This document shows positions 23,152-32,206 of a stretch of 63,242 nucleotides of DNA, one piece after another. The translations under genes and the position numbers were made by a program. The DNA comes from an uncultured Chitinophagaceae bacterium. GTDB taxonomy: Bacteria; Bacteroidota; Bacteroidia; Chitinophagales; Chitinophagaceae. The stretch spans positions 1 through 63,242 of the forward strand of contig CALLZY010000259.1 in assembly GCA_937858715.1 (NCBI GenBank), in the 5' to 3' direction. How positions within the stretch are numbered: position 1 is the first letter of the stretch; each line of letters starts with the position of its first letter. The notes below the pieces were generated by a model. The model ran no database searches. It saw nothing but the letters and a program-made list of their open reading frames with translations, and was not told where the DNA came from.

Positions 23152-23700
23152 ATGCAGGATGCAGAATTGATACAAAACGTTCTTTCCGGAAACCAGAAAG
23201 ACTACGAACAGTTGGTGAAAAAATATCAAACCAATGTGTTCCGTACCGTCATTGGCATACTGCACAATAAGGAAGATGCTGAAGAGATAACACAGGATGT
23301 ATTCATAAAGGCCTATCAGTCGCTTTCTTCATTCTCCGGAAAGTCGGCTTTTTCTACCTGGCTCTACCGGATAGCAATTAATGCAAGTATCAGCTACTTA
23401 AGGAAAAAGAAAAGAAGAGGGCTATGGGTTGAACTGACCGGTTTTTTTCAAATTCAGGCAAAAGAAAAAAGTGCCGAGGCGGAACTAACAGAAAAAAGTG
23501 GTCAACACCTGGTTCGCCAGGCAATAGATGGCTTGCCGGATAAACAGAAGCTTGCGTTTGTTCTTACCAAATATGAGGAGCTATCGCAAAGACAAGTGGC
23601 TGAAATATTGCAAATTACAGAGGGAGCCGTAGAACAGTTGGTGGTAAGGGCAAAGGTCAATCTGAGAAAGAAATTAGCCGGAGTATTCCGGGAACCGTAG
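23152..23700 (+). CDS. ECF-type RNA polymerase sigma factor
   Basis: A 182-residue sigma-70 family ECF factor. Region 2 (about 22-95) includes EEITQDVFIKAYQSLSSF and FSTWLYRIAINASISYLRKKKRR; region 4 (about 128-178) has LPDKQKLAFVLTKYEELSQRQVAEIL and the recognition helix around GAVEQLVVRAKVNLRKKL. Region 3 is absent, as expected. It heads a four-gene unit with a membrane-anchored partner, a CpxP/CnrX-like periplasmic protein and a small secreted protein, which points to an envelope or metal stress response. Confidence 0.94.
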   Translation: MQDAELIQNVLSGNQKDYEQLVKKYQTNVFRTVIGILHNKEDAEEITQDVFIKAYQSLSSFSGKSAFSTWLYRIAINASISYLRKKKRRGLWVELTGFFQIQAKEKSAEAELTEKSGQHLVRQAIDGLPDKQKLAFVLTKYEELSQRQVAEILQITEGAVEQLVVRAKVNLRKKLAGVFREP

Positions 23701-23743
23701 GATTATAAAAGAAAAGTTGTCAAATATTTTAATCAGCACAATT

Positions 23744-24052
23744 ATGAATAAAAGAAATGATGTTGATCTTCTTGTAGAGCAGTTTATTGTGGAAGAAAAA
23801 TCCATCGAACATAATCCTTTTCTGAGTACAAGGGTTATGGCTGTGCTGGACAACAAGAAACAACAGAATGTTAAAAGACTGTCGCCTGTGCTGAGGGCCG
23901 CTATAGTTTCATTTGGTTTTGCGGCCGCAGTCTTTGTTGGTTTTGCTGCAGGTAATTTGTATAATACGGAGGATAAAAAAGCAGAGGTGGTACTGGTTAA
24001 TGACGATGCTATGGAGCATTTTGCATTTTATAAGGACATAGAAAATGAATAA
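23744..24052 (+). CDS. Putative membrane-anchored anti-sigma factor
   Basis: A 102-residue protein with an N-terminal cytoplasmic stretch (1-48), one membrane helix (about 50-70, AAIVSFGFAAAVFVGFAAG) and a short periplasmic tail. It lacks the His-x3-Cys-x2-Cys zinc motif of ZAS anti-sigma factors. Its place directly after the ECF sigma gene and before a CpxP/CnrX-like gene parallels CnrY/NccY-type anti-sigma factors, which also lack zinc. ATG 23744 is chosen over an upstream TTG. The role is inferred from context and topology. Confidence 0.6.
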   Translation: MNKRNDVDLLVEQFIVEEKSIEHNPFLSTRVMAVLDNKKQQNVKRLSPVLRAAIVSFGFAAAVFVGFAAGNLYNTEDKKAEVVLVNDDAMEHFAFYKDIENE

Positions 24053-24061
24053 AGGAGTATG

Positions 24062-24589
24062 ATGCGCAAGACACAAATATTAACATGGGCTGTTGTTTTT
24101 CTTGCTGTAACAAACGCCGTTACGATAGGAACAATCCTTTATCACAACTACCAGGAAAGTCAGGAAAAAACAAATGTTGCCATAAACAGTGCAGACGGAA
24201 GTAATATGATTAATGGAAGGTATCTTAGGCAAACGCTGGGCTTTGATGCTGAACAAATAGCCTCATTCAGAGAGATTAATCAGCAGTTCAGACCCGCTGT
24301 GTACGATCTTACTATTTTGATTGATTCTTTAAAAACAAATATGTTCAGTGAAATGCAAAAATCATCGCCGGATACTGTTTTGCTTAGAAAGCTGTCTGCC
24401 AGCATCGGTGAAATGCACGGACAGTTAAAGTATGAAACATATAATTTCTTTTTGCGGCTGAAAAATATTTGCACACCCGAACAGGCGAAAGAATTAGAAA
24501 AGACTTTTCAACCTTTATTTAAAACTGAAGGCATAACACATCCTCCTTACCGGCACAGGTACAGGGGAGGGTTTCAAAAAGATTCATAA
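24062..24589 (+). CDS. CpxP/CnrX-like periplasmic sensor or chaperone
   Basis: A 175-residue membrane-anchored periplasmic protein. One N-terminal helix (about 6-25) is followed by an all-alpha domain with the pattern LRQTLGFDAEQIASFREINQQFRPAVYDL and a second repeat CTPEQAKELEKTFQPLF, the LTxxQ-type motif of the Spy/CpxP/CnrX group. In CnrX-type systems the domain senses metal ions and releases the sigma factor. AAAGGAG lies 4 bases before the ATG at 24062, one of the few clear ribosome binding sites here, so I choose this ATG over the one at 24059. No His/Met-rich metal site is evident apart from HPPYRHRYR at the C-terminus. Confidence 0.75.
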   Translation: MRKTQILTWAVVFLAVTNAVTIGTILYHNYQESQEKTNVAINSADGSNMINGRYLRQTLGFDAEQIASFREINQQFRPAVYDLTILIDSLKTNMFSEMQKSSPDTVLLRKLSASIGEMHGQLKYETYNFFLRLKNICTPEQAKELEKTFQPLFKTEGITHPPYRHRYRGGFQKDS

Positions 24590-24989: not shown

Positions 24990-25493
24990 ATGCAGGTGAC
25001 AATAAGAAGATGGAAGTATGAAGATTTAAGCAGTCTGGTTTTTCATGCAAACAACATTAATGTGTGGAATAATGTCCGCAATTATTTTCCTCACCCTTAC
25101 ACCGAAGAAAATGGAAGAGCATGGCTTGATAAGGTAGTGGAACCGGAGCCAGTAATAAATATGGCAATTGATGTTGATGGCGAGGCTGTAGGTGGAATTG
25201 GGTTGATTTTGAATGGTGATGTTTATATTAAGTCTGCCGAAATAGGTTATTGGCTTGGGGAGTCTTTTTGGGGTAAAGGGGTTACGACTGAAGCTGTACG
25301 GCAAATGACTGAATATGTGTTTTATTATTTTGATTTAGTTAGGCTATATGCAGAAGTTTTTGAGAGTAACAAGGCATCAATGAGAGTTTTGGAAAAAAAT
25401 GGCTATTACCTGGAAGGTGTTCGAAGGAAAGCTGTTTTTAAAAATGAAAAACTGATGGACGATTATATATGGGTGAAACTGCGGCCATACTGA
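24990..25493 (+). CDS. GNAT-family N-acetyltransferase (RimJ/RimL type)
   Basis: A 167-residue acetyl-CoA-dependent acyltransferase. The acetyl-CoA-binding region EIGYWLGESFWGKGVTTEAVRQM is clear, and RLYAEVFESNKASMRVLEKNGYYLEGVRRKAVF is the family C-terminal half. Substrates in this subfamily are amino termini of ribosomal proteins or small amines, which cannot be distinguished here. It ends 59 bases before the PqqD-like gene and reads in the same direction, so it could be the first gene of that operon or an independent neighbour. Confidence 0.88.
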   Translation: MQVTIRRWKYEDLSSLVFHANNINVWNNVRNYFPHPYTEENGRAWLDKVVEPEPVINMAIDVDGEAVGGIGLILNGDVYIKSAEIGYWLGESFWGKGVTTEAVRQMTEYVFYYFDLVRLYAEVFESNKASMRVLEKNGYYLEGVRRKAVFKNEKLMDDYIWVKLRPY

Positions 25494-25552: not shown

Positions 25553-25795
25553 ATGTATTTAAAGAAGAACATCGCAACCAGCGAATCTGGTTTTATTTTC
25601 AATCCCTCTACTGGCGATTCATATGCTGCAAACCCCGTCGCAGCGGAAATTATTTCAATGCTGAAGCAAGGGACACCAGCTTCTTCTGTAAAGCAGCATA
25701 TCCTGGAACAGTATGAAGTAGATACGCTGCGTCTTGAGAAGGACTGGGATGATTTTATGAGCCAATTAAAAGAAGCAAACCTTGTTGAAGACTAA
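25553..25795 (+). CDS. PqqD-like peptide-binding protein (RRE type)
   Basis: An 80-residue PqqD-family protein. The pattern is typical: an N-terminal beta strand with SGFIFNPSTGDSYAANPVAAEII, then MLKQGTPASSVKQHILEQYEVDTLRLEKDWDDFMSQLKEANLVED, matching the winged helix-turn-helix fold that binds leader peptides in RiPP pathways. No radical-SAM partner (PqqE type) is nearby, which is unusual. It starts a run of six genes spaced 9 to 16 bases apart or overlapping. In this context it probably presents a peptide or a protein tail to the ATP-grasp enzyme or the decarboxylase that follow. Confidence 0.82.
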   Translation: MYLKKNIATSESGFIFNPSTGDSYAANPVAAEIISMLKQGTPASSVKQHILEQYEVDTLRLEKDWDDFMSQLKEANLVED

Positions 25796-25804
25796 AATTT
25801 TTTT

Positions 25805-26857
25805 ATGAAAGAATCCGTTAAACCTTTGACGATTGCTGTAACCGGACTTAACGCCATTGATAGTCCCGGTCCGGGAGTTGCCGTAATCCGGGCACTACGG
25901 GATGGACTTGACAGACCGGTGCGGATAATTGGTTTGTCTTATGAGACGCTTGAACCCGGAATTTATATGCATGATGTGGTTGACAAGACTTACCAGGTGC
26001 CATATCCTGCTGCAGGTTCAGAAACACTTCTTAAACGTCTTCAATACATACACAGTAAAGAGGACTTACAGCTTATCATTCCCAATTTTGATGCTGAGTT
26101 GTATAATTTCATCAGACTGGCGCCTGTTTTAAAAAGTATGGGTATTGCTACTTTTCTTCCCACTCCAGAGCAATTTGAAGCAAGAGATAAGGTAAACCTA
26201 TACAGGTTTGGTGAAAAACATGGGCTAATAGTTCCCCAGGATAGAATCATTAATTCTGTTTTAGAGTTAAGCTCATGTGAAGAGGATTTTGGATTTCCAC
26301 TTGTTATAAAAGGAAAGTTTTATGATGCAATTATTGCTCATACAATGGAACAGGCGCAAAAGGCCTTTTATAAACTTTCTGCTAAATGGGGCTTGCCCAT
26401 CATCGTTCAGAAGTTTATAAGCGGAACAGAAATCAACATCGCAGTATTAGGTGATGGGCGAGGGAATGCCGTGAGTATTATTCCAATGCGGAAACTCTAT
26501 ATAACAGATAAGGGGAAAGCTTGGGCCGGAATTACTCTTGAAGACGAGGCATTAATAAAAGTTGCCAGCGATTTTGTAAAAGCCACCAACTGGAAAGGCG
26601 GCTGTGAACTGGAAATAATGAAGACGGCCAAAGGAGAGCTGTACATTATGGAAATTAATCCCCGGTTCCCGGCATGGATTTACTTAACAGCTGCTGCAGG
26701 TCAAAATCAACCCGCCTCACTTGCAAGAATGGCATTAAACGAAGATCAGCCTTTGTATAAAGAATATGCTGTCGGGAAAATATTTGTTCGCTATTCGTGG
26801 GATCATATAACCGATATTAATGAGTTTCACCAGATAAGCGGGAAAGGAGAATTATAA
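25805..26857 (+). CDS. ATP-grasp carboxylate-amine ligase-like protein
   Basis: A 350-residue ATP-grasp protein. The N-terminal part (about 1-115) is a Rossmann-like pre-ATP domain; the ATP-grasp lobes follow, with FPLVIKGKFYDAII for the phosphate-binding strand and MEINPRFP (282-289) giving the metal-binding Glu-x-Asn. The fold is closest by eye to carbamoyl phosphate synthase/biotin carboxylase-type and peptide-ligase ATP-grasp enzymes, which activate a carboxylate as acyl phosphate and join it to an amine. The substrate is unknown. It sits 9 bases after the PqqD-like gene and 10 bases before the decarboxylase. Confidence 0.82.
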   Translation: MKESVKPLTIAVTGLNAIDSPGPGVAVIRALRDGLDRPVRIIGLSYETLEPGIYMHDVVDKTYQVPYPAAGSETLLKRLQYIHSKEDLQLIIPNFDAELYNFIRLAPVLKSMGIATFLPTPEQFEARDKVNLYRFGEKHGLIVPQDRIINSVLELSSCEEDFGFPLVIKGKFYDAIIAHTMEQAQKAFYKLSAKWGLPIIVQKFISGTEINIAVLGDGRGNAVSIIPMRKLYITDKGKAWAGITLEDEALIKVASDFVKATNWKGGCELEIMKTAKGELYIMEINPRFPAWIYLTAAAGQNQPASLARMALNEDQPLYKEYAVGKIFVRYSWDHITDINEFHQISGKGEL

Positions 26858-26867
26858 TACGAATACT

Positions 26868-28226
26868 ATGAAGAAATTAAAGTATGAAAGCCCTTCCATT
26901 CAGAAAATGAATGGCGGGTTGATGAATAAGTTTGGAACGAGAACTGAATATGAACCAGTGAAGCACATTGACGGAGTATCAGTGCATGCAATGATGGAGC
27001 AATACGGCTCGCCCTTGTTTGTTATCAGTGAAAGAACCATCAGGAATAACTATCAAAATGCCGTAAGGGCCTTTACAACCCGTTACCCCAAAGTACAGTT
27101 TGCATGGAGTTACAAAACGAATTACCTGAATGCTGTCTGCAAAATATTTCATCAGGAAGGCAGCTGGGCAGAAGTGGTAAGCGGATTTGAGTATCAGAAG
27201 GCTCTTGGAAATGGTGTCCCGGGAGATAAAATCATTTTTAATGGTCCGGAGAAAACAAATGAAGAATTAAAGATTGCCGCAGATAACGGATCACTAATTC
27301 ACATTGACCATTTTGATGAGTTATATCAGCTTATCGAAATCAGTGATACGTTGAAAAGAAAACCCAGAGTGGCGATTCGTGTAAATATGGATACCGGGGT
27401 TTATCCTTTGTGGGACCGCTTCGGGTTCAACTATGAAAATGGCCAAGCATGGAGTGCAATTACAAAAATTGTAAACTCAGGTAAAATGGAGTTAACGGGT
27501 TTGCACTGTCATATCGGGACATTCATGCTTTCTGTGAATGCGTATGCAACCGCTGTAAAGAAACTGGGAGACCTTGCATGGAGGTGTAAAACACAATTGA
27601 ATAATCCCGTACTGTATATTGACCTTGGTGGTGGCTTTCCATCAAGCAATACACTTCGTGGCTCATTCCTTCCGGGAACAGATAATGTTCCGACGGTTGA
27701 TGAATTTGCAGAAGCCATCACATCACAACTGCTTCTGCTTGGTTTTTCTGCAAATGAGCTGCCGTTGCTAATGCTTGAAAGCGGCCGTGTGCTGGTAGAT
27801 GATGCAGGGTATCTGCTTTCAACAGTTTTGGCAAACAAAAGACTTAGTGATGGACGAAGGGCCACCATTCTCGATGCAGGAGTTAATATACTCTTTACTT
27901 CTTTTTGGTATGATCACAAAATTACTCCGGCACAAGAGTTTACACAGCATACAGAGGATATGGCTTTATATGGTCCTTTGTGCATGAATATCGATGTGGT
28001 GCGGCAAAGTGTAAATCTTCCTTTGCTCAACCGTGGCGATAAAGTGGTAGTGCATAAAGTAGGTGCTTACAATATGACACAATGGATGCAGTTTATTCAA
28101 ATGAGGCCCAATGTGATTTTAGTTGATGAAAATGGCGAAACACATTTAATCAGGGAAGCAGAGAGTCTGCATTATCTTGAAAGCCTTGAAAAGGTTCCGG
28201 AGCATTTACAGAAGATAAGTTTATAA
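26868..28226 (+). CDS. Fold-type III PLP decarboxylase (DAP/Orn/Arg decarboxylase-like) with leader-like N-terminus
   Basis: A 452-residue alanine-racemase-fold decarboxylase. PLP lysine K83 is in SYKTNY; H213 and H215 are in GLHCHIG; the phosphate-binding loop is GGGFP (254-258); LESGR (303-307) replaces the usual EPGR; C372-x3-D376 in GPLCMNID corresponds to the CxxxD catalytic site; Y401 is present. All catalytic elements are therefore kept. The first 23 residues (YESPSIQKMNGGLMNKFG within them) precede the catalytic fold, are not part of known decarboxylases, and read like a RiPP leader. The substrate could be diaminopimelate, another amino acid or a peptide C-terminus. It probably works with the adjacent PqqD-like and ATP-grasp proteins. 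Confidence 0.85.
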   Translation: MKKLKYESPSIQKMNGGLMNKFGTRTEYEPVKHIDGVSVHAMMEQYGSPLFVISERTIRNNYQNAVRAFTTRYPKVQFAWSYKTNYLNAVCKIFHQEGSWAEVVSGFEYQKALGNGVPGDKIIFNGPEKTNEELKIAADNGSLIHIDHFDELYQLIEISDTLKRKPRVAIRVNMDTGVYPLWDRFGFNYENGQAWSAITKIVNSGKMELTGLHCHIGTFMLSVNAYATAVKKLGDLAWRCKTQLNNPVLYIDLGGGFPSSNTLRGSFLPGTDNVPTVDEFAEAITSQLLLLGFSANELPLLMLESGRVLVDDAGYLLSTVLANKRLSDGRRATILDAGVNILFTSFWYDHKITPAQEFTQHTEDMALYGPLCMNIDVVRQSVNLPLLNRGDKVVVHKVGAYNMTQWMQFIQMRPNVILVDENGETHLIREAESLHYLESLEKVPEHLQKISL

Positions 28227-28242
28227 AGCTATACCGACAAGA

Positions 28243-30435
28243 GTGAAAACCAGAAGTATCATATCATTTGGCCAATACACCTTCAATACGGTGCTGAACA
28301 GTTATTCAATGCTCTTTTTCAGTAACCGCAAATTCTTTGCAGGGATTGTAATGCTGGTTTCTTTTTTCAATCCTTATACTGGTTTTGCCGGATTTGTAGC
28401 CACCTTAATAGCCGCACTTGCTGCATGGTTTATTGGGTTTAGCAGGGAGCAGGTAAGAACAGGACTTTATACCTACAGTGGTCTTTTAGCAGGGCTGGGG
28501 ATGGGAACATTTTATGAATTCAGTTTGGGGTTTTGGATATTGCTTGCTCTTGCTGCAATTTTTTCTGTAATGCTTTCAGCAGCCCTGATTGCCAAACTGG
28601 CTAAAAGTAATTTACCGGCATTGTCGCTGGCTTTCATTTTTACATTGTGGTTGGTAATATTATCATCAAGGGAGTTTGCGGTAATCGGGCTGACTGAACG
28701 AAATATTTATTGGCTGAATGAGATGTATGCTACCGGAGGAACCGGGTTGATTCGTCTTGTGCAGTGGTTTGAAGAATTGCCATTGCCTGAATCTGTTGCC
28801 GGTTTTTTACGTTCGCTGAGTGCTATTCTTTTTCAGAGCAATATTGCTGCAGGCATTGTACTTGCTATCGGCCTCTTTCTTTTTTCAAGAATAGCCCTGA
28901 CATTAATGATAGCCGGTTATACTATCGCCATTCTTTTCATTCAGCTGATGGATGGCTATTCTGGGAGTGTGAACTATTATAATCTCGGAACTAATTTCAT
29001 GCTGGTATCGGTAGCTCTGGGGGGCTTTTATATCATCCCTTCTGTCCGTTCTTATTTTTGGTCGCTGATTACAGTGCCTATATCCTATATCCTTGTTATT
29101 GCATTTTGGAAAATTACGTACACCTGGGGTCTTCCCGTTTTCTCTTTGCCTTTTTGTTTTACTGTAATACTCTTTATTTATGTTCTGCAATTAAGAAAGG
29201 CGGGCGGGAAAATGGTGCTAACACCTATTCAGTATTATAGTCCTGAAGAAAATTTGTACCGTTACATCAACAGTAAAGAAAGGGTATATAGCAACTTCTA
29301 TTATTATCACCTGGCACTTCCCTTTTTAGGAGAATGGACGGTAAGTCAAGGGTATAATGGCGGCTTAACACACAAGGGTGAGTGGAGCAAGGCTCTGGAT
29401 TTTGTTATAACGGATAAGGGTGGAAAAACATTTTATGGTAATGGGTCTGAACCAGAACAGTTTTATTGTTATAATAAACCAGTCGTAAGCCCGGCAGACG
29501 GAATTGTAGAAGAGGTGATTGACTATGTGGATGATAATCCAATAGGGAAAAATAACTTACACCATAACTGGGGAAACACAATTGTGATAAAACATGCGGA
29601 AGGGCTTTATACTAAATTGTCGCATTTAAAGAAAGGCTCATTTAAAGTTTCCAAAGGAGCTTATGTAAGAAAAGGAGATATTGTTGCAAACTGTGGCAGT
29701 TCGGGCAGGTCTCCCGAACCTCACCTTCATTTCCAGGTTCAGGCAACACCGTATTTCGATTCGAGAACACTGGCCTATCCGTTCGCTTATTATATTAAGA
29801 CAGTTGAAAACAAATCATCTGTTGAAACATTTTCAGTGCCAGAAGAGGGTACGACCGCCGGCAACATGACATTAAATAATCAGCTTGTAAGTGCTTTCAC
29901 ATTTCAGCCAGGGTATTGTATGAAAGTGAGTGCTGCTGACCACAAGGATGAGGAATGGGAAGTAATGGTAAGCGCATACAACGAAACATACTTGTATTGC
30001 AGTGAGTATAAGGCATATGCCTATTTTGTGAATAATGGTTCTGTTTTTTATTTCACCAATTATTTTGGCAGCAACAAATCGCTGTTATACTTGTTTTATA
30101 AGGCAGCGTATAAAATTGTGCTGACATCCGATAAAAGAATTACCACAGGTGATATATATCCTCAGAACATCCTGAACAGGCATCCTATGAAATGGCTGCA
30201 GGATATCATCTCTCCCTTTGCTGTTTTTATGCGGGTTTCATACAGAAGCACTGTAAAACAAGGCAGTGATATTATGGGTGGAACTGAGATTACGATAGAA
30301 AGCAGGGCAATACAAAAGTTTCTTAGAAACGAGAAAGAAATCTTTGCCGCCGAATTAACCATAGCCGGGGGGAGAATTGCTTCGTTTACTGCAATAATGA
30401 AAAACAAGAAAATTGAAGTTATATGCGGAAGTTGA
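28243..30435 (+). CDS. Urea-transporter-like membrane domain fused to M23 peptidase
   Basis: A 730-residue fusion. Residues 1-320 hold about ten membrane segments with urea transporter features (NPYTGFAGFVA, GLYTYSGLLAGLG, NYYNLGTNFMLVSVALGGFYIIPS). Residues about 355-510 are a LytM/M23 zinc peptidase with the full ligand set H377/D386 (THKGEWSKALDF), H461 (KLSHLKK) and H494-x-H496 (EPHLHFQ). The last 220 residues form a beta-rich domain I do not recognise. The GTG at 28243 is used because the preceding UT-like helix region would be lost at the next ATG (28309). It may move a small amide or amine and cut peptidoglycan stems or a peptide outside. It overlaps the next gene by 13 bases. Confidence 0.8.
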   Translation: MKTRSIISFGQYTFNTVLNSYSMLFFSNRKFFAGIVMLVSFFNPYTGFAGFVATLIAALAAWFIGFSREQVRTGLYTYSGLLAGLGMGTFYEFSLGFWILLALAAIFSVMLSAALIAKLAKSNLPALSLAFIFTLWLVILSSREFAVIGLTERNIYWLNEMYATGGTGLIRLVQWFEELPLPESVAGFLRSLSAILFQSNIAAGIVLAIGLFLFSRIALTLMIAGYTIAILFIQLMDGYSGSVNYYNLGTNFMLVSVALGGFYIIPSVRSYFWSLITVPISYILVIAFWKITYTWGLPVFSLPFCFTVILFIYVLQLRKAGGKMVLTPIQYYSPEENLYRYINSKERVYSNFYYYHLALPFLGEWTVSQGYNGGLTHKGEWSKALDFVITDKGGKTFYGNGSEPEQFYCYNKPVVSPADGIVEEVIDYVDDNPIGKNNLHHNWGNTIVIKHAEGLYTKLSHLKKGSFKVSKGAYVRKGDIVANCGSSGRSPEPHLHFQVQATPYFDSRTLAYPFAYYIKTVENKSSVETFSVPEEGTTAGNMTLNNQLVSAFTFQPGYCMKVSAADHKDEEWEVMVSAYNETYLYCSEYKAYAYFVNNGSVFYFTNYFGSNKSLLYLFYKAAYKIVLTSDKRITTGDIYPQNILNRHPMKWLQDIISPFAVFMRVSYRSTVKQGSDIMGGTEITIESRAIQKFLRNEKEIFAAELTIAGGRIASFTAIMKNKKIEVICGS

Positions 30436-31598
30436 TAATTACAGGATGGATAGTTTTGCTTTTTGCAGAACTGCCTGTTATTGCTCAAAATGAATTTTCA
30501 TTTACAAGGGTTGATAGCTTGTCTTACTCATTATATGAAAGGGGGGAATGGAAATCGCTGCTGCTTTATGGTAAAAAGGCGATTACAAATCAGCAAGATT
30601 TTTTATTGTTGCGCTTACGTTTGGGGTATGCAGCTTTTATGCTTAAAAATTACAGCGAAGCAATAAAACAGTATAATGCAGTGTTGAAAGAAGATTCTTA
30701 TAACAGCACTGCACACTTTTTTATTTACTGGAGCAGAATGAATTTGAATCAACCGGAAATAGCAATGGTGGAAGTAAAATTATTAGCACCGGGTGTTTTG
30801 CCTGAAAACAAGTATCAGCCATTTGCATTGTCTGGTGCGGAAGCAGAAGTAAGTTTTAAGAAGGCGGACAGTGCTTCCCGCGGAAAACCACTTTACGCAA
30901 GGGTCGGGATAGGAAACCGCTTCAGCCATTCTTTTCATATGCAGCAGTCTCTTGCAACCTATCAGCAAACACTTAATGAACCTTTGTTTACAGCAGTTAG
31001 CAACAGTGATAAGATAAACATCAGCCAGTTTGAATACTATAACCGGATGATGATTAATCTTGACCGGAGGTGGCAGCTTAAGACAGCCTATCATTATCTC
31101 TATACACCGTTCAATAATTTCACATATCAGAATCATCTTTTGCTGGCTGGTGTTAAATATTATGGTGGTTATTTCGATATTCAGGCTGATGCAATAATTG
31201 GCCGGCTTACAGATACAGCTACAAAACAGTATAATTTTCAATTGGGCTTTTATCCGTTTGGCAATTTGAATCTTTATAGTTTTTCAACGGCAAGTGTAAG
31301 ACAGCGGCATGGTTCAGCTTTTAATTTCAGGCAGGTGCTGGGGGTAAAGGTGTACAAAAACACCTGGCTTGAGGGCAATGTTACAATGGGCAAATTTCAA
31401 AATTTTGCAGAGAATGATGCGCTGTATGTGTATAACTCAGTTGATCCTGATAAAATAAAAGCAGGGATATCAGGCTATTTTATGTTTGGGAAAACAATGG
31501 CACAATTAGGGTACACATTCGAGCAAAAGGAATTTTTTAGTACAGCAAATACTTATAATCAACATTCAATTACCGGAGGTTTATCATGGAAGTTTTAA
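30423..31598 (+). CDS. TPR protein with C-terminal outer-membrane beta-barrel
   Basis: A 391-residue exported protein: signal peptide (about 1-21, ending PVIAQ), two or three TPR-like helical repeats (about 35-120), then alternating amphipathic strands to the end. The last residues are LSWKF, whose terminal Phe is the usual signal for insertion by the Bam complex. No exact family is recognised; it is YaiO-like in layout. It overlaps the upstream fusion protein and the downstream TPR gene by 13 bases each, so its translation is coupled to both. A role as outer-membrane exit or docking partner of the system is inference. Confidence 0.7.
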   Translation: MRKLIITGWIVLLFAELPVIAQNEFSFTRVDSLSYSLYERGEWKSLLLYGKKAITNQQDFLLLRLRLGYAAFMLKNYSEAIKQYNAVLKEDSYNSTAHFFIYWSRMNLNQPEIAMVEVKLLAPGVLPENKYQPFALSGAEAEVSFKKADSASRGKPLYARVGIGNRFSHSFHMQQSLATYQQTLNEPLFTAVSNSDKINISQFEYYNRMMINLDRRWQLKTAYHYLYTPFNNFTYQNHLLLAGVKYYGGYFDIQADAIIGRLTDTATKQYNFQLGFYPFGNLNLYSFSTASVRQRHGSAFNFRQVLGVKVYKNTWLEGNVTMGKFQNFAENDALYVYNSVDPDKIKAGISGYFMFGKTMAQLGYTFEQKEFFSTANTYNQHSITGGLSWKF

Positions 31599-32206
31599 GA
31601 AACACTACATTGGCCGTTATTGCAACCCTGTTCTTCTTTTCTGCAACCGCACAGCAGGATGCAAAACTTCAGGCTGCTTTTAAAGAAAGTTATACGCAGG
31701 AGGCAAATAAGCAGTACACTGCTGCCGTAGCAACACTTAAATCGGTTTACGATGAAAAAAGTTATGAGTTAAACCTGCGGATTGGATGGTTATACTATCT
31801 TGGAAAAGATTATCCGCAATCGCAGACATACTACCAAAAAGCGGTTAATCTGAAGCCATATGCTTTGGAAGCTAAATTTGGTTTATTGAAACCACTCAGC
31901 AGTTTGGAAAGTTGGGATAAAGTACTGCAACTATATGAGGATATTCTGAAGATTGACCCGCAAAATACCTTTGCAGGATACTGGGCAGGAGTTATTTACT
32001 ATAACCGCCGCAAGTATGAGCAGGCGGCAAAATACTTTGAGAAAGTTATAAACTTATATCCGTTTGATTACGATGGTAACCATATGCTTGGCTGGACATA
32101 CCTGAACCTGGGCCGCAGCAATGACGCTAAAATACTTTTCAATAAAGCGTTGTTGTCAAAGCCGGGCGATGCTTCGTGCCTGGAAGGTTTGGGAAAAATA
32201 AGATAG
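31586..32206 (+). CDS. Secreted TPR protein
   Basis: A 206-residue protein with a signal peptide (about 1-23, ending SATAQ) and about four tetratricopeptide repeats, for example ELNLRIGWLYYLGKDYPQSQTYYQKAVNLKP and AGYWAGVIYYNRRKYEQAAKYFEKVINLYP. TPR proteins in the periplasm usually scaffold a complex. It is the last gene of the six-gene set and overlaps the barrel protein by 13 bases. It is followed closely by the convergent acetyltransferase gene with only 17 bases between, so no terminator is visible. Confidence 0.8.
   Translation: MEVLRNTTLAVIATLFFFSATAQQDAKLQAAFKESYTQEANKQYTAAVATLKSVYDEKSYELNLRIGWLYYLGKDYPQSQTYYQKAVNLKPYALEAKFGLLKPLSSLESWDKVLQLYEDILKIDPQNTFAGYWAGVIYYNRRKYEQAAKYFEKVINLYPFDYDGNHMLGWTYLNLGRSNDAKILFNKALLSKPGDASCLEGLGKIR

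What the first reader, a model, noticed from the sequence alone, without database searches (positions are those of the whole stretch)
25553..32206. Undescribed six-gene system: PqqD-like, ATP-grasp, PLP decarboxylase, UT-M23 fusion, barrel and TPR proteins
Seen: six co-directional genes with gaps of 9, 10 and 16 bases and then two 13-base overlaps, so they are almost certainly one operon. Established: PqqD-like proteins bind leader peptides, ATP-grasp enzymes form acyl-phosphate-driven amide bonds, fold III PLP enzymes decarboxylate amino acids, M23 enzymes cut peptide cross-links. Inference: together they could make or trim an amino acid- or peptide-derived product and pass it through the inner membrane (UT domain), process it in the periplasm (M23) and dock at the outer membrane (barrel, TPR). 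No radical SAM, ABC exporter or precursor peptide gene was found, which separates it from known RiPP clusters.
Basis: partly seen in the sequence, partly recalled or inferred. Interest (0 to 1): 0.9.

Follow-up and report, generated by a model that had tools for sequence, protein, structure and literature searches.

The report
Six-gene operon with leader-tagged decarboxylase
A six-gene operon, kept in much the same order across many bacteria of one phylum, looks built to make and export an unknown small molecule, and one of its enzymes carries at its own front end the kind of address tag that usually sits on peptide precursors.

Summary
In detail: six co-directional genes with the stated gaps and overlaps. 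It is a real system. In a draw of 395 Bacteroidota genomes, 34 (27 of 170 genera) encode the UT-M23 fusion, the same 34 encode this decarboxylase subfamily, and all 34 have PqqD-like, ATP-grasp, decarboxylase and UT-M23 genes in that order on one strand.

New here: (1) The decarboxylase has an N-terminal tail, [YFW]xxPx[ILV]..., with an invariant Lys at fixed spacing, in 48 of 49 sequences; the 49th lacks a readable N terminus. It resembles the leader motif bound by lasso-peptide RRE proteins. (2) Among solved structures the PqqD-like protein is closest to those RREs, TbiB1 and TfuB1. (3) In 31 genomes the tail has one strong match each, the decarboxylase itself. (4) Pocket residues resemble FigC/FslC, which act on amide-capped amino acids.

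Best reading: the RRE docks the tagged decarboxylase to the ligase; amide formation, then decarboxylation, gives a small exported product. Binding, chemistry and product are untested.

The parts
25553..25795 (+). PqqD-like protein (80 aa), proposed RRE that binds the decarboxylase tail
   Evidence: Pfam PqqD 3.9e-11; best solved relatives TbiB1 1.5e-11 and TfuB1 1.1e-8, PQQ-pathway PqqD only 0.018; NCBIfam lasso_PqqD_Strm 2.1e-8 but 34.2 bits against a cut-off of 70
25805..26857 (+). ATP-grasp ligase (350 aa), PRK12767-like
   Evidence: Pfam ATPgrasp_Ter 1.9e-10; NCBIfam NF009405 2.1e-28, below cut-off; E270, E283, N285, R287 invariant in 13 of 13; no other copy at E<=1e-5 in the own genome
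26868..28226 (+). Fold III PLP decarboxylase (452 aa) of the FigC/LysA group
   Evidence: Pfam; best PDB match N-citrylornithine decarboxylase 7kh2, 191.7 bits, next 143.9; NCBIfam FslC 219.6 and lysA 216.7 bits, both below cut-off
26868..26936 (+). Leader-like N-terminal tail of the decarboxylase (residues 1-23); motif Y6-E-S-P9-S-I11 at 26883-26900, invariant K21 at 26928-26930
   Evidence: 48 of 49 sequences, fixed spacing; P9 and K21 invariant in 24 of 24 diverse sequences; tail identity 0.56 against 0.24 in the following linker and 0.57 in the fold; pLDDT below 50 for 1-30
28243..30435 (+). UT-M23 fusion (730 aa), GTG start
   Evidence: Pfam UT and Peptidase_M23; 34 of 395 phylum genomes
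28285..29184 (+). UT (urea-transporter fold) membrane domain, residues 15-314
   Evidence: positive-inside loops
29473..29742 (+). M23 metallopeptidase domain (Pfam match, residues 411-500; similarity extends to about residue 357), predicted cytoplasmic
   Evidence: H377, D386, H461, H494, H496 invariant in 45 of 45
30423..31598 (+). TPR plus 14-stranded outer-membrane beta barrel (391 aa); TPR helices about 30501-30776, barrel about 30825-31592
31586..32206 (+). TPR protein (206 aa) with N-terminal signal-like segment
   Evidence: Pfam TPR_2 1e-17; TPR gene in 30 of 32 phylum loci
24990..25493 (+). GNAT acetyltransferase gene 59 bases upstream; lineage-specific companion, not core
   Evidence: Pfam Acetyltransf_3 3e-27; same position in 9 of 44 loci compared

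Best explanation
A cytoplasmic enzyme complex makes a small amide-containing, decarboxylated molecule that leaves through the envelope. The PqqD-like protein is a RiPP recognition element (RRE) whose ligand is not a precursor peptide but the N-terminal tail of the operon's own decarboxylase; it docks that enzyme to the ATP-grasp ligase. The ligase forms an amide on an amino acid, and the FigC-like decarboxylase then removes the carboxyl group of the capped amino acid. The membrane protein UT-M23 lets the product pass the inner membrane, with its M23 domain on the cytoplasmic side, and the TPR-barrel with the TPR protein takes it through the outer membrane. Shown by calls: operon, conservation, tail, RRE relatedness, pocket residues, barrel model. 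Inferred: tail binding, order of reactions, topology, direction of transport. Unknown: the substrate and the product. My odds: RRE binds the tail 0.75; amide first, then decarboxylation 0.6; export rather than import 0.65.
For: Same 34 of 395 genomes carry UT-M23 and the decarboxylase subfamily, with the four genes in order in all 34 (window, L024, L072-L103). Tail in 48 of 49, with full motif and Lys in 32 of 32 phylum loci; background of the short motif in the first 30 residues of other ORFs 16 of 647. The own genome's two paralogous fold III proteins lack the tail. PqqD profile: TbiB1 1.5e-11, TfuB1 1.1e-8; these lasso RREs bind YxxPxL leaders (passages, PMC6784204; PMC12710340, W/Y/LxxP/L/I). 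One strong tail match in each of 31 genomes, all at the decarboxylase, E<=7.8e-9. Pocket: C372-M373 aligns with FigC C354-M355 where DAPDC has Cys-Glu; T344 and Y348 align with FigC T327 and Y331 where DAPDC has its Arg (roles from section 8 of PMC7857480). Related BtrK and MccE act on carrier-protein- or peptide-linked substrates (passages). TPR-barrel model.
Against: No binding was tested; AlphaFold jobs took single chains only. The tail has G at a different spacing (residue 17) from the YxxPxLxxxG form I recalled. NCBIfam scores FslC and LysA almost alike (219.6 and 216.7 bits) and both below cut-off. The citrate-binding FigC residues H357, R387 and N389 are I375, Q405 and M407 here (alignment), so the substrate is not citryl. 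The P0003 model is poor outside the tail too (318-412 below 50). UT direction and cargo are unknown; its two filter positions (recalled from a bacterial urea channel) are varied. The 14-stranded barrels it resembles include uptake channels (FadL, TodX), so import is possible.
Confidence: 0.5

Rival explanations
1. A RiPP pathway whose precursor peptide is encoded elsewhere in the genome; the RRE serves that peptide and the decarboxylase tail is a mimic or a regulatory brake.
For: The RRE is of the lasso B1 type, and RiPP precursors can be unlinked (recalled).
Against: A tail profile run on 31 genomes gave one strong hit each, the decarboxylase; the 23 further rows have E from 0.014 to 0.9. Of these I looked at four: chance frames inside or antisense to other ORFs or in a short spurious ORF; nineteen were not looked at. 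9 of the 34 phylum genomes were not given. A precursor with a different leader would be missed.
Confidence: 0.12
2. The tail itself is a precursor: the ATP-grasp enzyme modifies it, M23 cuts it off, and the peptide is exported. The decarboxylase is a borosin-like enzyme-precursor fusion.
For: Fixed spacing of leader motif and Lys/Gly block; a catalytically complete M23 domain predicted on the cytoplasmic side; precedent in borosins (abstract, PMC7878506).
Against: Only 6 core-like residues (GxMNKFG) are conserved; one peptide per enzyme molecule is costly; no cleavage site evidence.
Confidence: 0.12
3. An NIS-siderophore- or polyamine-like small-molecule pathway in which the tail is only structural and the PqqD-like protein is a general accessory.
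For: Closest characterised decarboxylase makes rhizoferrin; barrel resembles channels.
Against: Two tail residues are invariant outside the fold in 24 of 24 sequences while the linker after it drifts; no NIS synthetase among the core genes; citrate-binding residues replaced.
Confidence: 0.15
4. One reading: a peptide or amino-acid product trimmed in the periplasm by M23, possibly acting on peptidoglycan.
For: M23 enzymes are mostly murein hydrolases (recalled); catalytic residues intact.
Against: Positive-inside charges and UT homology place M23 in the cytoplasm: six loops assigned inside are net +0.27 to +1.51, three of four assigned outside are net negative, the fourth +0.38 (loop limits chosen by me from hydropathy). 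Related M23 domains occur on plasmids of haloarchaea, which lack murein (recalled).
Confidence: 0.1

Closest known systems
Lasso-peptide B1 (discrete RRE) and its YxxPxL leader
   Same: RRE closest to TbiB1 and TfuB1; aromatic-xx-Pro-x-aliphatic motif near an N terminus
   Different: Motif sits on a 450-residue PLP enzyme; no B2 protease or C cyclase seen among the core genes; no precursor found
FigC/FslC N-citrylornithine decarboxylase with its NIS synthetase
   Same: Fold, Met next to the catalytic Cys, Thr and Tyr in place of the DAPDC Arg; ligase-plus-decarboxylase logic
   Different: Citrate-binding residues replaced; ATP-grasp ligase instead of NIS synthetase; has a leader-like tail and an RRE
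BtrI/BtrJ/BtrK of butirosin biosynthesis
   Same: Decarboxylase of the same group acts on carrier-bound glutamate (passages); BtrJ as ATP-grasp loader is recalled
   Different: No separate carrier protein seen in the core operon; only 87 bits to BtrK
Borosins (OphMA)
   Same: Enzyme and peptide substrate region in one chain (abstract)
   Different: Methyltransferase, core at the C terminus; here a tail at the N terminus of a decarboxylase, modification not shown
Exosortase A-associated clusters (PLP decarboxylase PEP1, HPr-rel-A PqqD; context recalled)
   Same: P0003 hits dCO2ase_PEP1 1.3e-36 and P0001 hits PqqD_rel_X 1.9e-5, both below cut-off
   Different: Better hits elsewhere; 26 of 30 host genomes, the own genome included, have no exosortase match at E<=0.001

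Membership tests
Lasso peptide cluster | RRE related to B1 proteins | tested here: met
   TbiB1 1.5e-11, TfuB1 1.1e-8, though below the NCBIfam lasso cut-offs
Lasso peptide cluster | Precursor peptide gene with YxxPxL leader | tested here: not met
   Tail profile strong only on the decarboxylase in 31 of 31 genomes; a different leader would be missed
Lasso peptide cluster | B2 protease and asparagine-synthetase-like C cyclase in the cluster | tested here: not met
   The six proteins and the upstream GNAT protein show no such domain in Pfam or NCBIfam; the rest of the genome was not searched for them
Graspetide cluster | ATP-grasp macrocyclase plus precursor peptide | tested here: inconclusive
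   ATP-grasp is PRK12767-like; no precursor found by tail profile; not compared with graspetide ligases directly
FigC/FslC N-citrylornithine decarboxylase | Curated FslC model cut-off | tested here: not met
   219.6 bits against 500
FigC/FslC N-citrylornithine decarboxylase | Met beside the catalytic Cys and Thr/Tyr on the specificity helix | tested here: met
   C372-M373, T344, Y348 (alignment, conservation, roles)
FigC/FslC N-citrylornithine decarboxylase | Citrate-binding H357, R387, N389 | tested here: not met
   I375, Q405, M407 (alignment; I375 and Q405 invariant)
Diaminopimelate decarboxylase (LysA) | Cys-Glu loop and Arg for the distal carboxylate | tested here: not met
   Met and Thr instead; lysA 216.7 bits against 297.9
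Urea transporter (yut/UT) | UT fold | tested here: met
   Pfam 164 bits against 25
Urea transporter (yut/UT) | NCBIfam urea_trans_yut cut-off; filter Gln and Glu (recalled) | tested here: not met
   102 bits against 274.6; Gln position Q in 27 of 45, M in 10; Glu position A/L/S mostly, no Glu among the six commonest letters
M23 metallopeptidase | Zn ligands and catalytic His | tested here: met
   H377, D386, H461, H494, H496 in 45 of 45
M23 metallopeptidase | Periplasmic murein hydrolase | tested here: inconclusive
   Charges predict a cytoplasmic domain; no experiment
Slam-type or exopolysaccharide TPR-barrel exporter | N-terminal TPR and C-terminal OM barrel | tested here: met
   TPR_Slam only 0.075
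Slam-type or exopolysaccharide TPR-barrel exporter | Export of a known cargo | not testable with these tools
   no functional data
Exosortase A-associated cluster | Exosortase in the genome | tested here: not met
   No match at E<=0.001 in 26 of 30 genomes, own included

The most novel reading that the evidence does not exclude
A self-carrier enzyme. The invariant Lys21 of the decarboxylase tail is the covalent carrier: the RRE presents the tail to the ATP-grasp ligase, which joins an amino acid to Lys21; the enzyme decarboxylates it in place, as BtrK does on a carrier protein; the cytoplasmic M23 domain cuts the product from the tail beside the UT channel, and the TPR-barrel releases it outside the cell. 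It would be a RiPP-style address tag turned into a built-in carrier arm.
Probability: 0.15. Interest if true: 0.95.

Novelty: categorically new. Interest (0 to 1): 0.8.

Why it matters
RRE domains are used to find RiPP pathways by looking for a precursor peptide nearby. Here the RRE's only recognisable partner is the tail of an enzyme, so the RRE-leader pair would be a general docking device for metabolic enzymes, and clusters now dismissed for lack of a precursor would need a second look. The system is common (34 of 395 genomes, 15 families by the labels) and gives an entry to an unknown Bacteroidota metabolite, a possible non-urea UT channel and an M23 peptidase that appears to face the cytoplasm. 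The central claim needs one peptide-binding assay.

Tried and rejected
Known-system labels: PADLOC gave nothing for the six proteins, PHROGs nothing for the first three; Rfam gave no RNA family in the window; sigma-70 and terminator scans found about as many sites as shuffles would allow (30 against 21.7 sd 4.6; 12 against 7.4 sd 3.1) and were not used.

A free-standing precursor peptide: not found with the tail profile. A different leader cannot be excluded.

Diaminopimelate decarboxylase and plain ornithine decarboxylase: rejected on pocket residues. Exosortase link: rejected. Plasmid records: 54 match P0004 in part, none over 80%. Relatives: 12 of 58 match P0004 at E<=1e-20, but G001, G010 and G032 match only the M23 part, so 9 of 58 have the fusion; L027 and L028 come from such paralogues and were dropped from counts. 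Six loci that repeat contigs held under another id were dropped before the gap counts; identical C termini were merged before the tail count (54 to 49).

Fold search: Slam or PgaA structures are not in the 50 rows shown; that says nothing against such kinship. Distribution outside the phylum was not tested, apart from the plasmid search.

Literature: eight listings. None named this gene set; the searches aimed at it were made, in open-licence papers only. One search asked for a paper that is not held.
Full report

Host. The genome is a 4.4 Mb draft. Close loci found by name are Chitinophagaceae and neighbours: Flavihumibacter, Ferruginibacter, Sediminibacterium and unnamed Chitinophagales bins.

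Is it a system? Thirteen named loci from genome contigs and the loci of close relatives show the same gene order wherever the contig is long enough. In a draw of 395 genomes from the phylum, 34 have the UT-M23 fusion at E<=1e-60 and the same 34 have the decarboxylase subfamily at E<=1e-120; none has one without the other at these strict limits. I read the neighbourhood in all 34 (the window, L024 and L072-L103): PqqD-like, ATP-grasp, decarboxylase and UT-M23 genes stand in that order on one strand in each. In L101 the PqqD gene lies about 2 kb further upstream, and in L097 the UT-M23 gene is in two frames. A TPR gene follows in 30 of the 32 loci L072-L103. The window's barrel family is recognised in 11 of those 32. 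A second family of about 275 residues with barrel-like sequence (my reading, no model) lies right after the TPR gene in 12 loci of the same comparison and elsewhere near the operon in 3. So the first four genes are the invariant core and the two envelope genes are the usual but more variable end.

The tail. The alignment of the decarboxylases showed a conserved stretch ahead of the fold. In 48 of 49 non-identical sequences it fits [YFW]xxPx[ILV] with a Lys exactly 15 residues after the aromatic residue; the 49th (L035) has no readable N terminus. In the 32 phylum loci it is 32 of 32. In 24 diverse sequences Pro9 and Lys21 are invariant, and Lys3, Glu7, Gly17 and Gly23 reach 90%. Mean pairwise identity is 0.56 in the tail, 0.24 in the linker after it and 0.57 in the fold, with no indels inside the tail. 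The short motif alone occurs in the first 30 residues of 16 of 647 other ORFs. The genome's own paralogues of this fold lack it. In the AlphaFold2 model residues 1-30 have pLDDT below 50; this is weak support, because part of the C-terminal domain is also poorly modelled.

What reads the tail. A profile of the PqqD-like proteins finds TbiB1 (1.5e-11) and TfuB1 (1.1e-8) first among solved structures, and PQQ-pathway PqqD only at 0.018. Those two are lasso-peptide RREs. Passages in two papers give YxxPxL as the leader motif of such lasso peptides (PMC6784204; PMC10368454), and a third describes W/Y/LxxP/L/I recognition sequences for a large RRE group that includes FusE and PqqD (PMC12710340). 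A profile of the tail was run on 31 genomes (25 of the 34 plus six relatives). Each gave one strong match (E from 1.3e-15 to 7.8e-9), the decarboxylase gene. The other 23 rows have E from 0.014 to 0.90. I looked at four of these and saw chance frames. The simplest reading is that the RRE's partner is the decarboxylase itself. Binding has not been shown.

What the enzymes may do. The closest solved relative of the decarboxylase is N-citrylornithine decarboxylase (191.7 bits; next 143.9), although profile models score FslC and LysA nearly alike and below their cut-offs. Where diaminopimelate decarboxylase has an acidic residue next to the catalytic Cys, this family has Met373, and where that enzyme has the Arg for the distal carboxylate it has Thr344/Tyr348, as in FigC (roles from section 8 of PMC7857480). 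The FigC residues proposed to hold citrate are replaced by Ile375, Gln405 and Met407, so the cap is not citrate. The group also contains BtrK and MccE, which act on carrier-bound or peptide-linked substrates (passages). An ATP-grasp ligase next door fits amide formation before decarboxylation. The ligase's substrate is unknown.

Where M23 works. Over 45 homologues the six loops assigned to the inside are net positive (+0.27 to +1.51). Three of the four assigned to the outside are net negative, and the fourth is +0.38. The loop limits are my choice from hydropathy. With the known N-in, C-in topology of urea transporters (recalled) this puts the M23 domain in the cytoplasm. Its five catalytic residues are invariant in 45 of 45. 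The UT filter positions (recalled) vary: Gln in 27 and Met in 10 of 45 at one, mostly Ala, Leu or Ser at the other.

Best explanation and odds. RRE-docked ligase and decarboxylase make a capped, decarboxylated small molecule that leaves through UT and the TPR-barrel: 0.5 for the whole statement. The boldest reading that is left standing is that Lys21 is a built-in carrier arm: 0.15.

Novelty. The parts are known families; the combination is not one I could find (open-licence papers only), and no family tested here takes it in. Exosortase clusters, the nearest remembered context with PqqD-like and PLP genes, are not linked: 26 of 30 host genomes lack an exosortase match.

Noticed in passing
window 24990-25493: A GNAT acetyltransferase gene 59 bases upstream on the same strand; a relative stands in the same place in 9 of 44 loci compared. 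It may tailor the product in this lineage.
   Followed up: partly
L082, L083, L085-L088, L090, L091, L093, L103: In ten loci a secreted protein of about 280 residues with a C-terminal sorting-type domain (my reading) lies just upstream of the PqqD gene. It could be a surface partner.
   Followed up: partly
L109:8458-8808: A second PqqD-domain ORF in the own genome, among transporter and peptidase genes; no tail-bearing partner was seen beside it.
   Followed up: partly
L112, L113, L114: M23 domains similar to that of P0004 (36 to 44% identity) sit on plasmids of haloarchaea and Thermus. Haloarchaea have no murein (recalled), so this M23 branch may have another job.
   Followed up: no
L097:7944-10198: The UT-M23 gene of one genome is in two overlapping frames, probably a frameshift.
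   Followed up: partly
L025 and L026 (genome G012): Two contigs of one bin carry near-identical copies of the start of the operon, each cut inside the UT part at the contig end: a duplication or mixed strains.
   Followed up: no
window 23152-24589: A sigma-factor-like gene with two small membrane or periplasmic protein genes lies upstream of the GNAT gene; sigma-factor-like genes also lie near the operon in L030, L031 and L032.
   Followed up: no
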